The position numbers and the translations under genes are program-made. A stretch of 40,475 bases of DNA, taken from the NCBI RefSeq assembly GCF_009695655.1, contig NZ_VUNM01000026.1, positions 1 through 40,475 of the forward strand, given 5' to 3'. This document shows positions 16,445-24,686 of this stretch, piece by piece; within the stretch, counting starts at the first letter, position 1, and every line of letters begins with the position of its first letter. A model generated the notes under the pieces. The model ran no database searches. It worked only from the letters and a program-made list of their open reading frames with translations, and was not told where the DNA came from. The stretch is from Sharpea porci. GTDB taxonomy: Bacteria; Bacillota_I; Bacilli_A; Erysipelotrichales; Coprobacillaceae.

Positions 16445-16462
16445 AACGATGGAGGGATGGAA

Positions 16463-18571
16463 ATGAAGACAAAGGAAATCATGAAAACGATCAAAGCTTA
16501 TTATCAAAAAGCAGCCACAATCTATTCAGATTATCGTCATTACGTCCCCTCTTATGCGCCAGCTGCCTTAACATTCTATTTGATTATTTTAATTGTTCCC
16601 GCTATTTCTATTGTTGCCTTTACGACAAGTCTCTTTCATTTTAATTCGGATATACTTGTGGATTTATTAGAACAATACCTGACAAGTCCTTATGCCATTA
16701 TGTTGGTAGATATTATCGAAAATCCAACCATTTCATTAGGATCATTCGTTGTCTTTGCTTTGTCTCTTTATGCCATAAGTAGAGGTGTTGGCAATGTCTA
16801 TCAGATCTCCAAAGAACTCTTTCCTGATGCAAAGAATGACGAAGATACAATTATTGGCTATTATGCTTATACTTTTGAAATCACTATTCTTTTATTACTC
16901 TTTGCGATTGGCTTTGTTTTCTTTGTGGCCGTTGGACCTATTGCGGCATTCTTTAATGTCTTCTATGATTACCTATTGTTGCGTCAGATCTTGTTGTTTT
17001 CTTTATTCATTCTCTTCTTTTCATTAATCTATAAACTTATTCCTAAGCCTCATATCTTTCTCAACGAAGCTATGAAGGGGGCTGTCGTGACAACGTTAGG
17101 AGATATCATTCTTTATTTCATTATTCGTTATTATTTCAAGAATGTGTCCTTCTCCAATGTCTATGGCCCACTTGCTTCCATTGTTATGGTTTTCTTTGTC
17201 TTGAATTGGGGTTGTGAGATTTTCTATGTTGGTATGTATGTCACGCATCTCTTTTATGAAAAGCGTTTAGCCCATTCTATTAGTATAGTTAAGGTCGATA
17301 CGATTAACCATCTTGGCCAGGGGATTGCAACGCTAGCAGGAAAGAAAATTTTCCTTAAAAATGTACTCCCTCATGAAATTGTACAGATTGCCATCAAAAA
17401 AGAAAGAGCCCATGACATTGATGCTCTAGCAATAAAGATTCTTATTCCTTCAGTAATGCGCTTGCAACCAGTATGCCTGCAGGCAGATCTTTGTGAAGGC
17501 TGTTCGTTCCAATATATGGCATCTTCTGCCCAAATAACCCACAAGAAAGAAACAATTGCCTTGCTTATTAACCGCTTTACAACATTTAAAAATGACAATA
17601 TTTCTTTCATGCCTCCGCTTAACCCACTTCATTATTTACAAGAAGTCCAATATGATCTCTATGATTATGAAGGAACGCTTTATTTTGGTGAACTTACTAA
17701 AGAAAGCATCACTTTTAAAAGTCAGTGCCTCCTTAATGATACAATGATCAATGATGTCCTTCACTTTCTTGAAGACACCTTCAATAAGTGCCATGTTTCA
17801 ACATATGATGATCCCACCCAAAAGGGTATTAAAGGTGTTCGTATTAAGCGTGTCGAAGAGGGCTGTCTTGTCTTTATTCAAAGTGGTCGAGGCGATTTAA
17901 GTGAGGAACTTGTCAATAGGCTTAAAGCCAATCAACACATCCTTGGCCTTTATAAACGTCCTGTCAATCGGGTGCGACATTATGTAAGACTGAGTCAGCC
18001 TTTACAAATATATGGTCGTCATCATTATCATCTTGTTGTAGAAAATAGATCTTATCGCCTCTCTTCTCTCTCTGACTTTACAATTCATCCTGACAGGAAT
18101 GAAAGAATGCAAAAGCTTGTCGATCAAGAGGAAACGATTCTGTCGCTTTATTGTGGAAATGGTATCATGGAATATGGACTGAGAGGTGATGTGAGTTGTA
18201 TCTTTGAAGAAGATTATGAATTTGAGGATGCAGTGAGAAACAAGAAGAACTTACATCTTAGCAACATGCATCTTTACAAGGGGCCTGTTGAACAGCGTGC
18301 CAGTCTGCTTCTCTCGCACCATCACTATGATACAGTCATTGTCCATTTATCAGATCATCAGTTCTCAAGTATTCTTTCGCAATCCTTTTATCACTCAAAT
18401 ATCAAGAAAGTCATTATTATTAGTGAAGATGTTTATGCTTTTCTAAAATCTATTTATTACTATGATGCGATGCGCTTACAAAGCAGTTACCAACTTGTCT
18501 TAGTTGAAGGGTTTGATCCAAGTCCCTATACGCCTCAAATAGGTGGCATTTTTGTCTTTCTACGTAAATGA
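16463..18571 (+). CDS. YihY/BrkB membrane domain fused to a degraded RlmD/TrmA-type methyltransferase domain
   Basis: This is a 702-residue fusion. Residues 1-262 form the YihY/BrkB multi-helix membrane domain (PSYAPAALTFYLIILIVPAIS ... YGPLASIVMVFFVLNWG). From about 275 on, the chain follows the class of uracil-5 methyltransferases that modify 23S rRNA: a TRAM-like segment, then the Fe-S cysteines C338-x5-C344-x2-C347 and C422, and a Rossmann remnant (LSLYCGNG near 562). The catalytic parts are gone: the family's DPPR loop reads IVHLSDHQ (about 622) and the SCNPAT nucleophile segment reads IIISEDVYAF, with no cysteine. The membrane part looks intact; the second half can at most bind RNA or an Fe-S cluster. 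The ATG at 16463 has better ribosome-site spacing than 16457. Confidence 0.8.
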   Translation: MKTKEIMKTIKAYYQKAATIYSDYRHYVPSYAPAALTFYLIILIVPAISIVAFTTSLFHFNSDILVDLLEQYLTSPYAIMLVDIIENPTISLGSFVVFALSLYAISRGVGNVYQISKELFPDAKNDEDTIIGYYAYTFEITILLLLFAIGFVFFVAVGPIAAFFNVFYDYLLLRQILLFSLFILFFSLIYKLIPKPHIFLNEAMKGAVVTTLGDIILYFIIRYYFKNVSFSNVYGPLASIVMVFFVLNWGCEIFYVGMYVTHLFYEKRLAHSISIVKVDTINHLGQGIATLAGKKIFLKNVLPHEIVQIAIKKERAHDIDALAIKILIPSVMRLQPVCLQADLCEGCSFQYMASSAQITHKKETIALLINRFTTFKNDNISFMPPLNPLHYLQEVQYDLYDYEGTLYFGELTKESITFKSQCLLNDTMINDVLHFLEDTFNKCHVSTYDDPTQKGIKGVRIKRVEEGCLVFIQSGRGDLSEELVNRLKANQHILGLYKRPVNRVRHYVRLSQPLQIYGRHHYHLVVENRSYRLSSLSDFTIHPDRNERMQKLVDQEETILSLYCGNGIMEYGLRGDVSCIFEEDYEFEDAVRNKKNLHLSNMHLYKGPVEQRASLLLSHHHYDTVIVHLSDHQFSSILSQSFYHSNIKKVIIISEDVYAFLKSIYYYDAMRLQSSYQLVLVEGFDPSPYTPQIGGIFVFLRK

Positions 18572-18675: not shown

Positions 18676-18708
18676 TGAATTGTAAAAATATTAGGAGGCT
18701 TATTACAG

Positions 18709-20013
18709 ATGAAAAAATTTTCTTATGTTGTTGTCAACCCTATGGGTGTACACGCACGTCCAGCTGCTTTATTAGCACAGTTATGTGTTGGTTTAAGAAG
18801 TGCCGTTACAATTGAATGCAATGGTAAGACTGCTGGAGGAAACAACGTACTTCAGGTTTTAGCTCTTGAAGCTAAGAAGGGCGATACTTTGAATGTAACA
18901 GTTGAAGGTGTTGATGAAGAAGAAGCAGTTAAACGGGTTGAAGATTTATTACATGGCGATTTCGAAGAAAAAGCACCTGCAAAAGTATTAAAGATTGCTT
19001 TCTTTGGTACAAAGGACTATGACAGAGTATTCTTCTCAGAATTAGTTAAAGATAAAGGTCCTGGTACTTATAATTCAGATATTAAATATTTCTCTACTCG
19101 TTTAACTCCTGAAACAGCTCAGTTAGCTAAAGGCTACGATGCAGTATGTATCTTCGTTAATGATGAAGCTCCTCGTTCAGTTGTTGAAACATTGGCTGAA
19201 TGTGGTGTTAAGTTAATCTTATTACGTTGTGCTGGCTTCAACAATGTTGACTTACAGGCTGCTAAGGAATGTGGTATTAAAGTAGCTCGTGTTCCTGCTT
19301 ACTCACCATATGCAGTTGCTGAACATGCAATGGCTATTCTTCAGGAAGCTAATAGAAGACTTGGCAGAGCTTATAACAAAGTAAAAGATAATAACTTCGC
19401 TTTAAATGGCTTACTTGGTGTTGACTTACATAATAAGGTTTGTGGTATCTTAGGTACAGGTAAGATTGGTCAATGCTTCGCTAGAATTGCTAAGGGATAT
19501 GGCATGACTGTTATTGGCTGGGATGCTTTCCCTAATAAGAAGCTTGAAGAAGAAGGCTTATTAACTTATGTCAGCAAAGATGAATTATTTGAAAGAGCTG
19601 ACTTAATTTCATTACATTTACCACTTATCATGGGTGAAGGTGGAACATATCATATCATCAATAAAGAAACAATTGCTAAGATGAAAGATGATGTTATGTT
19701 AGTAAACTCTGCACGTGGACCATTAATTGATGCTGAAGACTTAATTGCTGCATTAAAAGCTGGTAAATTCCATGCTGTTGCATTGGATGTATATGAAGGT
19801 GAAGACGCTAACGTTTACACTGACAGAAGTGATGAAAGATTACATTCTTCAATCACAGCTCGTTTAACAATGTTCCCTAATGTTGTCTTAACTTCACACC
19901 AGGCATTCTTCACAAGAGAAGCATTACAGGCTATCGCAGTAACAACTATGGAAAATGCACGTAACTTCAATGAAGGCCGTGACTTAGGTGCTGCTGAAGT
20001 CAAAGCTAAATAA
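18709..20013 (+). CDS. HPr domain fused to a D-2-hydroxyacid (D-lactate-type) dehydrogenase
   Basis: This 434-residue fusion starts with an HPr phosphocarrier domain (residues 1-88): MGVHARPAALLAQL places the phosphorylated histidine exactly at residue 15. The Ser46 position is Asn46, so HPr kinase regulation should be absent. Residues about 93-430 form an NAD-dependent D-lactate dehydrogenase-like enzyme: nucleotide site GILGTGKIG (246-254), substrate arginine in NSARGPLID (R336), ALDVYEGE with the catalytic Glu, and the catalytic histidine in TSHQAFF (H397). It should reduce pyruvate to D-lactate while its HPr head exchanges phosphate with the sugar PTS. Codon choice is strongly biased to a few codons, unlike its neighbours, as in highly expressed genes. 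Confidence 0.88.
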   Translation: MKKFSYVVVNPMGVHARPAALLAQLCVGLRSAVTIECNGKTAGGNNVLQVLALEAKKGDTLNVTVEGVDEEEAVKRVEDLLHGDFEEKAPAKVLKIAFFGTKDYDRVFFSELVKDKGPGTYNSDIKYFSTRLTPETAQLAKGYDAVCIFVNDEAPRSVVETLAECGVKLILLRCAGFNNVDLQAAKECGIKVARVPAYSPYAVAEHAMAILQEANRRLGRAYNKVKDNNFALNGLLGVDLHNKVCGILGTGKIGQCFARIAKGYGMTVIGWDAFPNKKLEEEGLLTYVSKDELFERADLISLHLPLIMGEGGTYHIINKETIAKMKDDVMLVNSARGPLIDAEDLIAALKAGKFHAVALDVYEGEDANVYTDRSDERLHSSITARLTMFPNVVLTSHQAFFTREALQAIAVTTMENARNFNEGRDLGAAEVKAK

Positions 20014-20027
20014 TATTTTCATACATA

Positions 20028-20050
20028 AAGGTGGCTATGCCACCTTTTTT
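20028..20050 (+). terminator. Intrinsic terminator after the HPr-dehydrogenase gene
   Basis: AAGGTGGC (20028-20035), TAT loop, GCCACCTT (20039-20046), then Ts. Confidence 0.92.
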
Positions 20051-20104
20051 CTTATGTTGTTTCTTAAGGGAAATTCGTATATACTACTTACGTAGGTGAA
20101 AGAC

Positions 20105-21550
20105 ATGGCTAGAAAAAAGAAAACTTTTGACGATTCTCCCTTAGAAAGAGAACCTCGATATTATACAAAACAATCTCATATGATTTCTAATGCATATAAG
20201 CGTCCCTATAAAGATGAACAAACAGGAGGTATTAGAAAACCTTCCTTATTAGAAATCTATAAAAGAAAGAGAATGAAAGATTCGATTGACCTCACAACAT
20301 CCACAAAGCATTATGAAACTCATGATGAAGAAATGTTGTCACGTGATATCAATCGTCATTATGAAAGAACCTATCAAGCTAAAGAAACAGCGGGCACTCA
20401 GTCACATATAAATTTCGAACGAGAATCACTTCTCAACAAGACACATTATGAAGCACCTCTTCCTACTATTAACTTTCAAAGAGGGACATTAAAAGAACCA
20501 CAATTAAAACAAGAGACACATATCAATTTTGAAAGCAATCAGCATGTAGCTCATCCGCGCACACCGCTTCCTACAATCAACTTTCAAACACAAAAACGCA
20601 CAAATCCTAAGCCATCACAAACACTTCCACAAATACATTTTGGACAAAAACTAGAATTCAAGAAAAAACAATCCGATCTTGTCAACATTCATTTCAAAGA
20701 AGAACGTAGTTTCAAGAAAGCCCCTGACAGGACTTTGCCACAAATACATTTTGAACAAACACTTAAAGAAAAACAATCGCTTAATAAGATTCCTAAGATT
20801 AATTTTCAGAATGAACATAAGGAAACGAAAGTCGTTGAAAGTATTCCTAAGATTCACTTTAGAAGTGAAGAAAAACCAATACGTAAACAAGCGGCTATCC
20901 CACAGATTCATTTCATTCATGAGACACGTCCGGTTAAGAAACCAGCAGAACTACCAAAGATTCATTTTGTTATTCCTCAGCCAGTTAAGAAAAAACAAAA
21001 TGACTATACAATTCACTTTACGCATGAGTCTTCTCTTAAGCCCAAGAAGGCTTCAAGTAAGGCTACTACAAAGATAAGCTTCTCAAGCTACAATAAACAA
21101 AACTATAAAATGACGAAGCCTGTAAGTAAGGCTGTTACGAAAATCACTTTCCCAAGTATTGCCCTCGCTAAGCGCAAGACATATAAACAGGTGGATCGTG
21201 GTGTGACAAAGCCTCATTTTTCACTCAAAAGCAAGCAGGCTAAAGAGATGCTTTATCATACGCATGCTCCCACAAAAACACAAAAATCAGCTTATATCTT
21301 TAAACAGTATGAAACACAATCGATGGGCAGTATGCTTAAAGGAAATGCCATGCATGATAAATTGCCATTAGAGCTTGATAAGAGCCGCACAGCTAAACGC
21401 ATTCAGCGAGAACACAACTGGTTCTCCGTTGTGATTGGTATTGGTATTGTTGGTTTATTTGCATCACTCTTCTTTAATGTCATGCAGTCAGCAATCATGT
21501 TTGGCTTATTGATTATTTTAGGCATTTATGGCTATTGGACATCACGTTAA
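20105..21550 (+). CDS. Repeat-rich basic protein with 15 I-x-F motifs and two C-terminal membrane helices
   Basis: No family is recognised. The 481-residue product is Lys/Gln/Thr-rich and probably unfolded over residues 1-435, without a signal peptide. Between about residues 101 and 370 a short motif recurs 15 times at 10-25-residue spacing: HINFE, TINFQ, HINFE, TINFQ, QIHFG, NIHFK, QIHFE, KINFQ, KIHFR, QIHFI, KIHFV, TIHFT, KISFS, KITFP, KPHFS. Residues about 437-481 form two hydrophobic helices (FSVVIGIGIVGLFASLFF, then AIMFGLLIILGIYGYW). This suggests a tail-anchored cytoplasmic tether with many copies of one docking motif. The ATG at 20105 follows GTAGGTGA; the GTG at 20096 lies in that ribosome site. 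It is monocistronic between two terminators. Confidence 0.85.
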   Translation: MARKKKTFDDSPLEREPRYYTKQSHMISNAYKRPYKDEQTGGIRKPSLLEIYKRKRMKDSIDLTTSTKHYETHDEEMLSRDINRHYERTYQAKETAGTQSHINFERESLLNKTHYEAPLPTINFQRGTLKEPQLKQETHINFESNQHVAHPRTPLPTINFQTQKRTNPKPSQTLPQIHFGQKLEFKKKQSDLVNIHFKEERSFKKAPDRTLPQIHFEQTLKEKQSLNKIPKINFQNEHKETKVVESIPKIHFRSEEKPIRKQAAIPQIHFIHETRPVKKPAELPKIHFVIPQPVKKKQNDYTIHFTHESSLKPKKASSKATTKISFSSYNKQNYKMTKPVSKAVTKITFPSIALAKRKTYKQVDRGVTKPHFSLKSKQAKEMLYHTHAPTKTQKSAYIFKQYETQSMGSMLKGNAMHDKLPLELDKSRTAKRIQREHNWFSVVIGIGIVGLFASLFFNVMQSAIMFGLLIILGIYGYWTSR

Positions 21551-22610: not shown

Positions 22611-24686
22611 ATGAGTACAGAAAAGCATTCCCATCGTGCCTTAATTGGCTTTGATAAGAACGGTGTTCCTACCGTCATTGTTCCTGCAGATCATCATGAA
22701 CATACTCATGAGGATGAACATGGACATCTTTATACCCACATTCATGAAGCGGAATTTACAGCTGACTATATGCAGGCCGTCAATGATTATCGTAAGACAT
22801 TCCCTAAAGCTGATGAAGTCTTAGAGAAAACACCTGATCCAGCTGTTAAGGAGATGCTGGTGAGAATGAAGGAGCTCGATATGCCAACGGCCTTTGATCG
22901 TTTTGATAGCCAGCAACCACAGTGTGCGTTTGGTTTATCCGGTGTTTGTTGTAAGATATGTAATATGGGACCTTGTAAGATTACAAAGAAGAGCCCTAAA
23001 GGTGTCTGTGGCGCGGATGCTGATCTGATTGTAGCAAGAAATCTCTTGCGTTCAGCTGCTTCAGGTGTTGCCCAGCATGGTATTCATGCCAGAGAAGTGA
23101 TTCTTTCACTTAAGTGGGCGGCTGAAGGAAAGCTCGATCTACCACTTATTGGCGAAAATAAGATTCGTGCTGTTGCCAAGCAGTTTGGCATTAAGACAGA
23201 ACATCGTCAAATCAAAAATATCACGATTGACCTGGCTAATATTTTATTGGAAGATTTATCAAGAACAGAGCCTGATGAATATAAGACAATTACAGCCTGT
23301 GCCCCAAAAGAACGTCAGGAAATCTGGAAGCAGCTCGATATCCTGCCTATTTCCGCCTACCATGAAACATTTGAAGCTTATCACCGTACAGGGGTAGGTA
23401 CGGATGGCGATTGGAAGAATGTCATGCAGCAGTTCTTACGTTGTGGTCTGACATTTGTCTTCAGTACGGTATTAGCGACAAGCATTGCCACGGATGGTTT
23501 ATTTGGTGTTGGTGATCGTGTGACATCGAAGACAAACATGGGGGCTTTAAAGGAAGGCTATGTCAATATTGCGGTTCATGGCCATTTGCCTACTCTTGTC
23601 AGTCAGATTGTTAAGACAGGACAGAGTGAAGAATTCATCAAGATGGCAAAGGATGTTGGAGCTAAAGGCATCCGTTTCTATGGAATCTGCTGCAGCGGTC
23701 TATCAGCAATGTATCGCTATGAAGGGGTTATTCCGCTTTCCAATGCAGTGACTGCCGAACTTGTTCTTGCGACAGGGGCACTTGATTTATGGGTGGCAGA
23801 TGTCCAGGATGTCTTCCCAGCAATCATGGACGTGGCAAGATGCTTTAAGACAACTGTCATTACAACAAGTGATTCCGCACGTTTGCCAGGGGCAGAACAT
23901 ATTGCCTATGATCATCATCATTCCAATATTGGTGAAACAAAGGCTATTGCCAGAAAGATTGTCACACGTGCGATTGAAAGCTTTGCGGCAAGAAAGGGCA
24001 CACCAGTACATATTCCACCATATGAAGTTGAAGCTGAAGTCGGCTTCTCGCTCGAATATGTGCATCGTCATTTTGGCTCAATGAAGCCATTGGCACAAGC
24101 ACTTAAGAGTGGCAAGATTCTAGGTATTGTCAATATGGTTGGCTGTAATAATCCTAAGGTGCCTTATGAACGTACAGTTGTCGATGTTGCTGATGTACTG
24201 ATTAAAAATAATGTCCTTATTCTCACAAATGGCTGTGCTTCTTTCCCACTCATGAAGCTAGGTTATTGTAAGAAAGGTGCAGGCGTCCTAGCGGGGGAAG
24301 GATTGCATGAAATACTAGGTGATGATTTACCACCAGTATGGCATGTAGGAGAATGTATTGATAATGCGCGTTCTTCAGCAATATTTGGTGGTATTGCCAG
24401 TGAACTTGGTGAAAAACTATGTGACTTGCCATTTGCCTTCTCCTCACCTGAATGGGGGAATGAGAAGGGCATTGATGCGGCACTTGGCTTCCGTTTGATG
24501 GGATTGAATTCTTATCATTGCGTTGAAGCGCCTATTCATGGCTCTGCCAATGTCATCAATTTCCTCAAAGAAGAAACAAAAGATTTACTTGGATCAGCTA
24601 TGATTGTCAATGTCGATCCAAAAGCATTGGGTGAACAGATTGTTGAAGATTTCAAGAAACAGCGTCAAGAATTAGGTTGGGATTAA
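22611..24686 (+). CDS. cooS: Ni,Fe carbon monoxide dehydrogenase catalytic subunit with a variant C-cluster
   Basis: This 691-residue protein belongs to the anaerobic CO dehydrogenase family. The D- and B-cluster cysteines are complete, from C105 on (CAFGLSGVCCKICNMGPC, then GVCGA). C-cluster ligands: HGH (H323/H325), GICC (C360/C361), VGCNNP (C512), NGCAS (C542) and GECIDN (C582) are present, but the ligand corresponding to Cys333 of the Carboxydothermus enzyme (usually VQC) is Asp400 in VQDVFP. The first 66 residues are an extra, His-rich extension (DHHEHTHEDEHGH) that could hold nickel. No CooC, CooF or acetyl-CoA synthase genes are in view; instead an ABC transporter follows one base downstream. 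CO oxidation is thus uncertain. Confidence 0.9.
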   Translation: MSTEKHSHRALIGFDKNGVPTVIVPADHHEHTHEDEHGHLYTHIHEAEFTADYMQAVNDYRKTFPKADEVLEKTPDPAVKEMLVRMKELDMPTAFDRFDSQQPQCAFGLSGVCCKICNMGPCKITKKSPKGVCGADADLIVARNLLRSAASGVAQHGIHAREVILSLKWAAEGKLDLPLIGENKIRAVAKQFGIKTEHRQIKNITIDLANILLEDLSRTEPDEYKTITACAPKERQEIWKQLDILPISAYHETFEAYHRTGVGTDGDWKNVMQQFLRCGLTFVFSTVLATSIATDGLFGVGDRVTSKTNMGALKEGYVNIAVHGHLPTLVSQIVKTGQSEEFIKMAKDVGAKGIRFYGICCSGLSAMYRYEGVIPLSNAVTAELVLATGALDLWVADVQDVFPAIMDVARCFKTTVITTSDSARLPGAEHIAYDHHHSNIGETKAIARKIVTRAIESFAARKGTPVHIPPYEVEAEVGFSLEYVHRHFGSMKPLAQALKSGKILGIVNMVGCNNPKVPYERTVVDVADVLIKNNVLILTNGCASFPLMKLGYCKKGAGVLAGEGLHEILGDDLPPVWHVGECIDNARSSAIFGGIASELGEKLCDLPFAFSSPEWGNEKGIDAALGFRLMGLNSYHCVEAPIHGSANVINFLKEETKDLLGSAMIVNVDPKALGEQIVEDFKKQRQELGWD

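What the first reader, a model, noticed from the sequence alone, without database searches (positions are those of the whole stretch)
18709..20013. HPr phosphocarrier fused to a D-lactate dehydrogenase
An intact His15 HPr domain, with Asn replacing the regulatory Ser46, is joined to a complete dehydrogenase with all catalytic residues. Codon use points to high expression. The link could let PTS flux (phosphorylated versus free histidine) tune lactate formation directly, a control logic not described for standard LdhA.
Basis: partly seen in the sequence, partly recalled or inferred. Interest (0 to 1): 0.65.

Follow-up and report, generated by a model that had tools for sequence, protein, structure and literature searches.

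The report
HPr-fused D-lactate dehydrogenase in gut bacteria
In a large group of rumen and gut bacteria the enzyme that makes D-lactate carries, as part of the same protein, an apparently working copy of HPr, the sugar-uptake phosphate carrier, so lactate production may be wired directly to sugar uptake; the fusion is real, old and conserved, but what it does has not been tested.

Summary
Window 18709-20013 is one 434-codon gene: HPr (residues 1-83), a linker of about 10 residues, then a complete LdhA-type D-lactate dehydrogenase (94-430). It is not a one-genome oddity. Full-length fusions occur in 70 of 294 sampled genomes of the order (Erysipelotrichales, two families); I compared 96 distinct proteins. 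The LDH and HPr trees each place the fusions on one side of a branch, consistent with one origin. All 96 keep His15, Ala16 and Arg17; none has Ser46 (Asn 77, Asp 19); all keep the dehydrogenase catalytic residues. The HPr face that docks to Enzyme I in known HPrs is the most conserved part of the fused domain. Of 46 fusion genomes, 45 also carry a separate HPr, 45 have one Enzyme I, and 35 show no L-LDH match. [quoted passage not shown] Best reading: a D-LDH coupled to the sugar phosphotransferase system through His15, insulated from HPr kinase. Whether His15-P changes activity, only tethers LDH to pyruvate-releasing Enzyme I, or works the other way is undetermined. I found no published description.

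The parts
18709..20013 (+). HPr-D-lactate dehydrogenase fusion gene, 434 aa
   Evidence: single ORF; Pfam PTS-HPr + 2-Hacid_dh + 2-Hacid_dh_C; conserved in 96 distinct proteins
18693..18698 (+). Shine-Dalgarno AGGAGG, 10 bases before the ATG
   Evidence: sequence; similar sites before the fusion in most relatives
18709..18957 (+). HPr domain (residues 1-83)
   Evidence: PF00381 E 1e-21; TIGR01003 above cut-off; matches solved HPr structures, best 1y4y E 5e-13; HPr-like secondary structure in a model of mean pLDDT 92.7
18751..18753 (+). His15 codon (predicted phosphorylation site)
   Evidence: invariant in 96 of 96 distinct fusions, with Gly13, Ala16, Arg17
18844..18846 (+). Asn46 codon (position of the HPr kinase target Ser46)
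   Evidence: Asn in 77, Asp in 19, Ser in 0 of 96 fusions; Ser in 20 of 20 canonical free HPrs of the same order (the canonical set was chosen by its KS motif)
18958..18987 (+). linker, residues 84-93, variable
   Evidence: poorly conserved stretch, higher nonsynonymous divergence than either domain in most of the diverged pairs; no alternative start codon in the window
18988..19998 (+). LdhA-type D-lactate dehydrogenase (residues 94-430)
   Evidence: phmmer to Fusobacterium nucleatum D-LDH 5z21 E 6e-98; model against 5z21/5z20/6abj Z 41, TM(target) 0.92-0.95
19453..19470 (+). NAD-binding motif GTGKIG (249-254)
   Evidence: Gly249, Gly251, Gly254 invariant in 96 fusions
19714..19716 (+). catalytic Arg336
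   Evidence: invariant in the 95-row alignment with standalone LDHs; role from knowledge of the family
19801..19803 (+). catalytic Glu365
   Evidence: invariant in the 95-row alignment; role from knowledge of the family
19897..19899 (+). catalytic His397
   Evidence: invariant in the 95-row alignment; role from knowledge of the family
20027..20052 (+). intrinsic terminator (gene probably monocistronic)
   Evidence: 9-bp stem plus T-run

Best explanation
A fermentative D-lactate dehydrogenase (pyruvate + NADH to D-lactate + NAD+) with an N-terminal HPr domain that couples it to the phosphoenolpyruvate:sugar phosphotransferase system. Proposed working: Enzyme I docks on the HPr face and exchanges phosphate at His15, so the His15~P/His15 ratio reports PEP/pyruvate and sugar flux. 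When PTS sugar is plentiful, HPr is mostly unphosphorylated and the dehydrogenase is in its more active state; when sugar runs out, PEP rises and phosphorylation damps lactate formation. Loss of Ser46 frees the domain from HPr kinase, so it reads Enzyme I only. Shown: fusion, conservation, intact sites, presence of Enzyme I, HPr kinase and other HPrs, homology to the allosteric tetrameric D-LDH class. Inferred: phosphorylation by Enzyme I, its effect on activity, and its sign.
For: One ORF with both domains. 96 of 96 distinct fusions keep Gly13, His15, Ala16, Arg17, Val47, Leu48 and the dehydrogenase catalytic residues; none has Ser46. Positions that contact Enzyme I in known HPrs are far more conserved than the rest of the fused domain (mean modal frequency 0.88 against 0.62, p 4e-4; 0.86 against 0.60 with the His15 loop left out). 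The HPr part is under purifying selection, dN/dS about 0.02-0.32, mostly about 0.1. The fusions are one side of a branch in both trees (SH-aLRT 100 for LDH, 94 for HPr), so the pairing has been inherited across two families. 45 of 46 fusion genomes have one Enzyme I and 45 of 46 also a separate HPr, so the fused HPr is not the replacement carrier. 35 of 46 show no L-LDH match. The nearest solved relatives, F. nucleatum and P. aeruginosa D-LDH, are allosteric tetramers (PMC4230899), so the scaffold can take allosteric input. A lactate permease gene lies divergently beside the fusion in about 8 of 76 loci. Precedent for the logic: unphosphorylated HPr stimulates PykA in Vibrio vulnificus by lowering its Km for PEP (PMC5987630), and E. 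coli HPr binds PykF, PfkB, NagB and Adk (PMC8167557).
Against: No biochemical data. 19 of 96 fusions carry Asp46; a negative charge there slows phosphorylation by Enzyme I in B. subtilis HPr (my knowledge), so part of the clade may be poorly phosphorylated. The docking face is conserved but as residues that differ from the host's own canonical HPr (Ala20, Gln24, Val47, Leu48, Leu51, Ala55), which could mean another partner, such as the LDH domain itself. The linker is variable, unlike many domain pairs that signal to each other. I could not read model coordinates, so I cannot say whether HPr touches the active-site cleft.
Confidence: 0.5

Rival explanations
1. Tether rather than switch: HPr docks the dehydrogenase onto Enzyme I, which releases pyruvate, the LDH substrate, each time it is phosphorylated by PEP. 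The fusion places lactate formation at the pyruvate source, with little or no change in LDH kinetics.
For: Same conserved Enzyme I face and His15; Enzyme I present as a single copy in 45 of 46 genomes; often the main LDH candidate; no conserved contact between the domains needed (variable linker).
Against: Pyruvate diffuses fast and HPr-Enzyme I contacts are brief, so the gain is uncertain; strict conservation of His15 itself is not required for docking alone.
Confidence: 0.2
2. Reverse control: the dehydrogenase senses NADH/NAD+ and pyruvate, and its opening or closing changes access to His15, so redox state tunes phosphate flow through the PTS.
For: Kinetics of the F. nucleatum D-LDH suggest shape changes on NADH and pyruvate binding (PMC4230899); HPr sits beside the mobile catalytic domain in sequence; PTS genes are abundant in this lineage according to PMC5069950.
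Against: A separate HPr exists in 45 of 46 genomes and could carry PTS flux unaffected; no direct evidence.
Confidence: 0.1
3. Two independent activities on one chain: the fused HPr is simply another general phosphocarrier, kept at high level because it rides on an abundant enzyme.
For: Intact phosphorylation site and docking face; the genomes keep several specialised HPrs.
Against: Free HPrs are already present; a fusion inherited across two families suggests the link itself is useful.
Confidence: 0.14
4. HPr is now only a structural or solubility domain; the phosphorelay role is lost.
For: Ser46 is lost and several face residues differ from canonical HPr.
Against: His15, Arg17 and the docking face are the most conserved parts of the domain, the opposite of what a structural relic predicts.
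Confidence: 0.06

Closest known systems
HPr of Gram-positive bacteria (PtsH; TIGR01003, PF00381)
   Same: Fold by sequence, HARP active site with His15 and Arg17, conserved Enzyme I face
   Different: Fused to an enzyme; Ser46 replaced by Asn or Asp; a separate HPr lineage from the host's ptsH
Tetrameric LdhA-type D-lactate dehydrogenases (F. nucleatum 5z21, P. aeruginosa 5z20/6abj, E. coli 5z1z)
   Same: 44-49% identity, same fold and catalytic residues
   Different: Extra N-terminal HPr; clade-specific insertions at 116-120, 281-284, 308-310 and an extra C-terminal tail 425-434; oligomeric state untested
Multiphosphoryl transfer proteins, FPr, DhaM (HPr fused to Enzyme I or IIA domains; PMC2405797)
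   Same: HPr as one domain of a larger chain
   Different: Those partners are PTS proteins; here the partner is a metabolic oxidoreductase
Streptococcus thermophilus LacS (IIA domain fused to a lactose carrier; from memory)
   Same: A PTS phosphorylation domain joined to its presumed target
   Different: IIA, not HPr; a transporter, not an enzyme
V. vulnificus HPr-PykA and E. coli HPr-PykF/PfkB/NagB/Adk regulation (PMC5987630, PMC8167557)
   Same: HPr controlling an enzyme of central carbon metabolism; in V. vulnificus according to its phosphorylation state
   Different: There HPr is a separate protein acting in trans; here it is covalently attached
Crh (B. subtilis HPr-like regulator)
   Same: Specialised HPr paralogue
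   Different: Crh keeps Ser46 and lacks His15; the fused HPr is the mirror image

Membership tests
HPr family (PF00381/TIGR01003) | profile match above the curated cut-off | tested here: met
   77.1 bits against cut-off 23; 69.7 against 47.9
HPr family (PF00381/TIGR01003) | phosphorylatable His15 in G-x-H-A-R-P | tested here: met
   window and 96 of 96 fusions for His15 and Arg17
HPr family (PF00381/TIGR01003) | phosphorylation by Enzyme I and transfer to IIA | not testable with these tools
   needs purified proteins; Enzyme I gene present
Gram-positive HPr regulated by HPr kinase | Ser46 | tested here: not met
   Asn46 in the window; Asn 77, Asp 19, Ser 0 of 96, although HPr kinase is present in the genome
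LdhA-type D-lactate dehydrogenase | sequence and fold match to solved D-LDHs | tested here: met
   5z21 E 6e-98, 47-49% identity, Z 41
LdhA-type D-lactate dehydrogenase | GxGxxG motif and catalytic Arg, Glu, His | tested here: met
   G249/G251/G254, R336, E365, H397
LdhA-type D-lactate dehydrogenase | pyruvate reduction to D-lactate | not testable with these tools
   no assay; a related 2-ketoacid cannot be excluded. A lactate permease gene beside it in about 8 of 76 loci fits lactate
NCBIfam D-LDH equivalogs (PRK12480, VanH) | score above the curated cut-off | tested here: not met
   183-202 bits against 540-579: not one of those named subfamilies
Multiphosphoryl transfer protein | HPr fused to Enzyme I or IIA domains | tested here: not met
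   no such domain found in the chain

The most novel reading that the evidence does not exclude
A built-in metabolic circuit: Enzyme I, the HPr domain and D-LDH form a unit in which the pyruvate released during PTS sugar uptake is sensed through His15~P, and possibly handed over directly, by the enzyme that reduces it to lactate; or redox state feeds back from LDH onto sugar uptake. No such covalent coupling of the PTS relay to a fermentative dehydrogenase turned up in the searches made here.
Probability: 0.3. Interest if true: 0.85.

Novelty: new variant of a known kind. Interest (0 to 1): 0.62.

Why it matters
Control of metabolic enzymes by HPr binding in trans is known in at least two bacteria; here the pairing is welded into one protein and kept across a group of rumen and gut bacteria, many of which show no L-LDH match. 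Lactate output by Sharpea has been linked to low methane yield in sheep, and the Sharpea D-LDH gene was reported strongly expressed there (PMC5069950). If His15 phosphorylation sets the enzyme's activity, lactate formation is tied to sugar uptake at the protein level, testable with a single purified protein plus Enzyme I. Cultured species (Sharpea azabuensis, Eggerthia catenaformis, Faecalibacillus, Floccifex porci) carry it.

Tried and rejected
Assembly or annotation artefact: rejected, see observation check. Fused HPr derived from the host ptsH: rejected, it is a separate HPr branch. Fusion replacing ptsH: rejected, 45 of 46 genomes keep a separate HPr; G042, with only the fusion, is a fragmented assembly. 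Conserved operon: none found, no neighbour family in more than 10 of 76 loci. Internal LDH-only start: none in the window's linker; of the 81 fusions that keep the TKDYDR landmark, 16 have a possible start codon nearby and 7 an SD-like string, so not excluded everywhere. Association of the fusion with Enzyme I: of 15 genomes with the closest standalone LDH, 3 lack Enzyme I and 5 have only a weak match, against about 2 of 70 fusion genomes (Fisher p 5e-6; counts taken by hand; test), but most of the 8 fall in two genera, and G036, which has both kinds, is in the 15, so I give it little weight. Docking geometry: model coordinates could not be read in the script box. The first structure model (16 rows) had mean pLDDT 76.7 and was replaced by one of 95 rows. 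The structure search listed only dehydrogenases, as the larger domain fills the list; the HPr half rests on sequence. A placement check of the 'Lachnospiraceae' loci L109 and L110 failed; their family is left open. Ten paper searches found no description of this fusion, but most subscription papers are not held.

Full report
What is there. Window 18709-20013 (+) is one ORF of 434 codons with AGGAGG 10 bases before its ATG and a strong terminator after its stop. Pfam reads PTS-HPr at 3-81 and a complete D-2-hydroxyacid dehydrogenase at 114-425. The HPr half matches solved HPrs (1y4y, E 5e-13). The other half matches LdhA-type D-lactate dehydrogenases, best F. nucleatum 5z21 (E 6e-98); a 95-sequence AlphaFold model (mean pLDDT 92.7, pTM 0.85) aligns to 5z21, 5z20 and 6abj at Z 41.

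Where it lies. The window is a whole contig of a 2.5 Mb, 99% complete genome. The fusion of Sharpea azabuensis DSM 18934 is 99% identical; its contig has the same length as that of G021, which is in the window's genus. So the host is a Sharpea (Coprobacillaceae, Erysipelotrichales). Synonymous divergence of about 0.2 from that copy suggests another species.

How widespread. 70 of 294 genomes of the order carry the full fusion, 66-99% identical, with 4 more in pieces at contig ends. A scan of 84,980 species genomes kept its 80 best loci, all fusions by match span (residues 1-430 or more, one starting at 4), including Eggerthia catenaformis, Faecalibacillus faecis and intestinalis, Floccifex porci and [Clostridium] spiroforme. 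Some records are labelled Lachnospiraceae; they fall inside the fusion clade of the trees and I could not settle their placement. In a 392-genome sample of the phylum, relatives listed outside the order matched only from about residue 58-120 on, as ORFs of about 260-370 aa: dehydrogenases without HPr.

One origin. In the dehydrogenase tree 56 fusions lie on one side of a branch from 27 standalone enzymes (SH-aLRT 100). In the HPr tree 65 fused domains are likewise together (SH-aLRT 94), apart from the S46, K46, N46 and His15-less free HPr groups (few columns, so modest resolution). Long branches caution against over-reading the root.

What selection keeps. Over 96 distinct fusions Gly13, His15, Ala16, Arg17, Val47 and Leu48 are invariant; position 46 is Asn 77, Asp 19, Ser 0; the NAD motif and Arg336, Glu365, His397 are invariant. 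HPr dN/dS is mostly about 0.1, against about 0.05-0.1 in the LDH part. The twelve positions that contact Enzyme I in known HPrs (list from memory of the E. coli complex) are more conserved than the rest of the domain: 0.88 against 0.62, p 4e-4, and still 0.86 against 0.60 without the His15 loop; sequences are related, so the p-value is only a guide. Several differ in identity from canonical HPr of the same order (Ala20, Gln24, Val47, Leu48, Leu51, Ala55), so the face may be tuned to a different or additional partner.

Genome context of function. Of 46 fusion genomes, 45 have exactly one Enzyme I, 45 at least one separate HPr, and 35 no L-LDH (PF02866) match. The window genome has HPr kinase, one L-LDH and four other dehydrogenase ORFs of the same superfamily that I read as other enzymes by sequence, so the fusion is its only LdhA-type D-LDH that I recognised. 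Neighbouring genes are not conserved, but a lactate permease lies divergently beside the fusion in about 8 of 76 loci. Kamke et al. report that in low-methane sheep the D-lactate dehydrogenase gene of S. azabuensis was highly expressed, 12-fold up; HPr does not occur in the text (PMC5069950). That their gene is this fusion is my inference.

How it probably works. Established knowledge: Enzyme I takes phosphate from PEP, releases pyruvate and passes the phosphate to HPr His15; HPr is unphosphorylated when PTS sugar flows. In V. vulnificus unphosphorylated HPr activates a pyruvate kinase (PMC5987630), and E. coli HPr binds several central enzymes (PMC8167557). D-LDHs of this class respond to effectors such as FBP and Mg2+ (PMC4230899). 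The simplest model is that the fused HPr reports sugar flux to the dehydrogenase, active when unphosphorylated, with HPr kinase input removed by loss of Ser46. Each step beyond sequence is inferred. Tethering to Enzyme I as the pyruvate source, reverse control of the PTS, and an ordinary extra phosphocarrier remain open.

Judgement. I found no published description of this fusion in the searches made.

Noticed in passing
window 16457-18571: Another unusual fusion just upstream: a BrkB/YihY membrane domain joined to an RlmD-like 23S rRNA methyltransferase region (704 aa; below the RlmD cut-off). Full length in G021, G067, G011, G036 and G080; in other relatives the two parts match as separate, sometimes adjacent ORFs.
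   Followed up: partly
window 22611-24686: Anaerobic CO dehydrogenase catalytic subunit (TIGR01702 above cut-off) in a lactate-producing gut bacterium.
   Followed up: no
window 20096-21550: 484-aa protein with many repeated I-H-F / I-N-F motifs and a C-terminal hydrophobic stretch; no Pfam or NCBIfam match.
   Followed up: no
L003 1489-1746; also L175, L178, L182, L186, L205, L206: Crh-like HPr paralogue with Tyr at position 15 and Ser46 kept, in the window genome and family relatives.
   Followed up: partly
L004 and L176, L179, L181, L184, L191, L193, L203, L207: HPr class with Lys45-Lys46 instead of Ser46, His15 kept.
   Followed up: no
L195, L197, L202: Free HPrs with Asn46 (NPKNI motif), sharing Asn46 with the fused domain; a separate clade in the HPr tree.
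   Followed up: no
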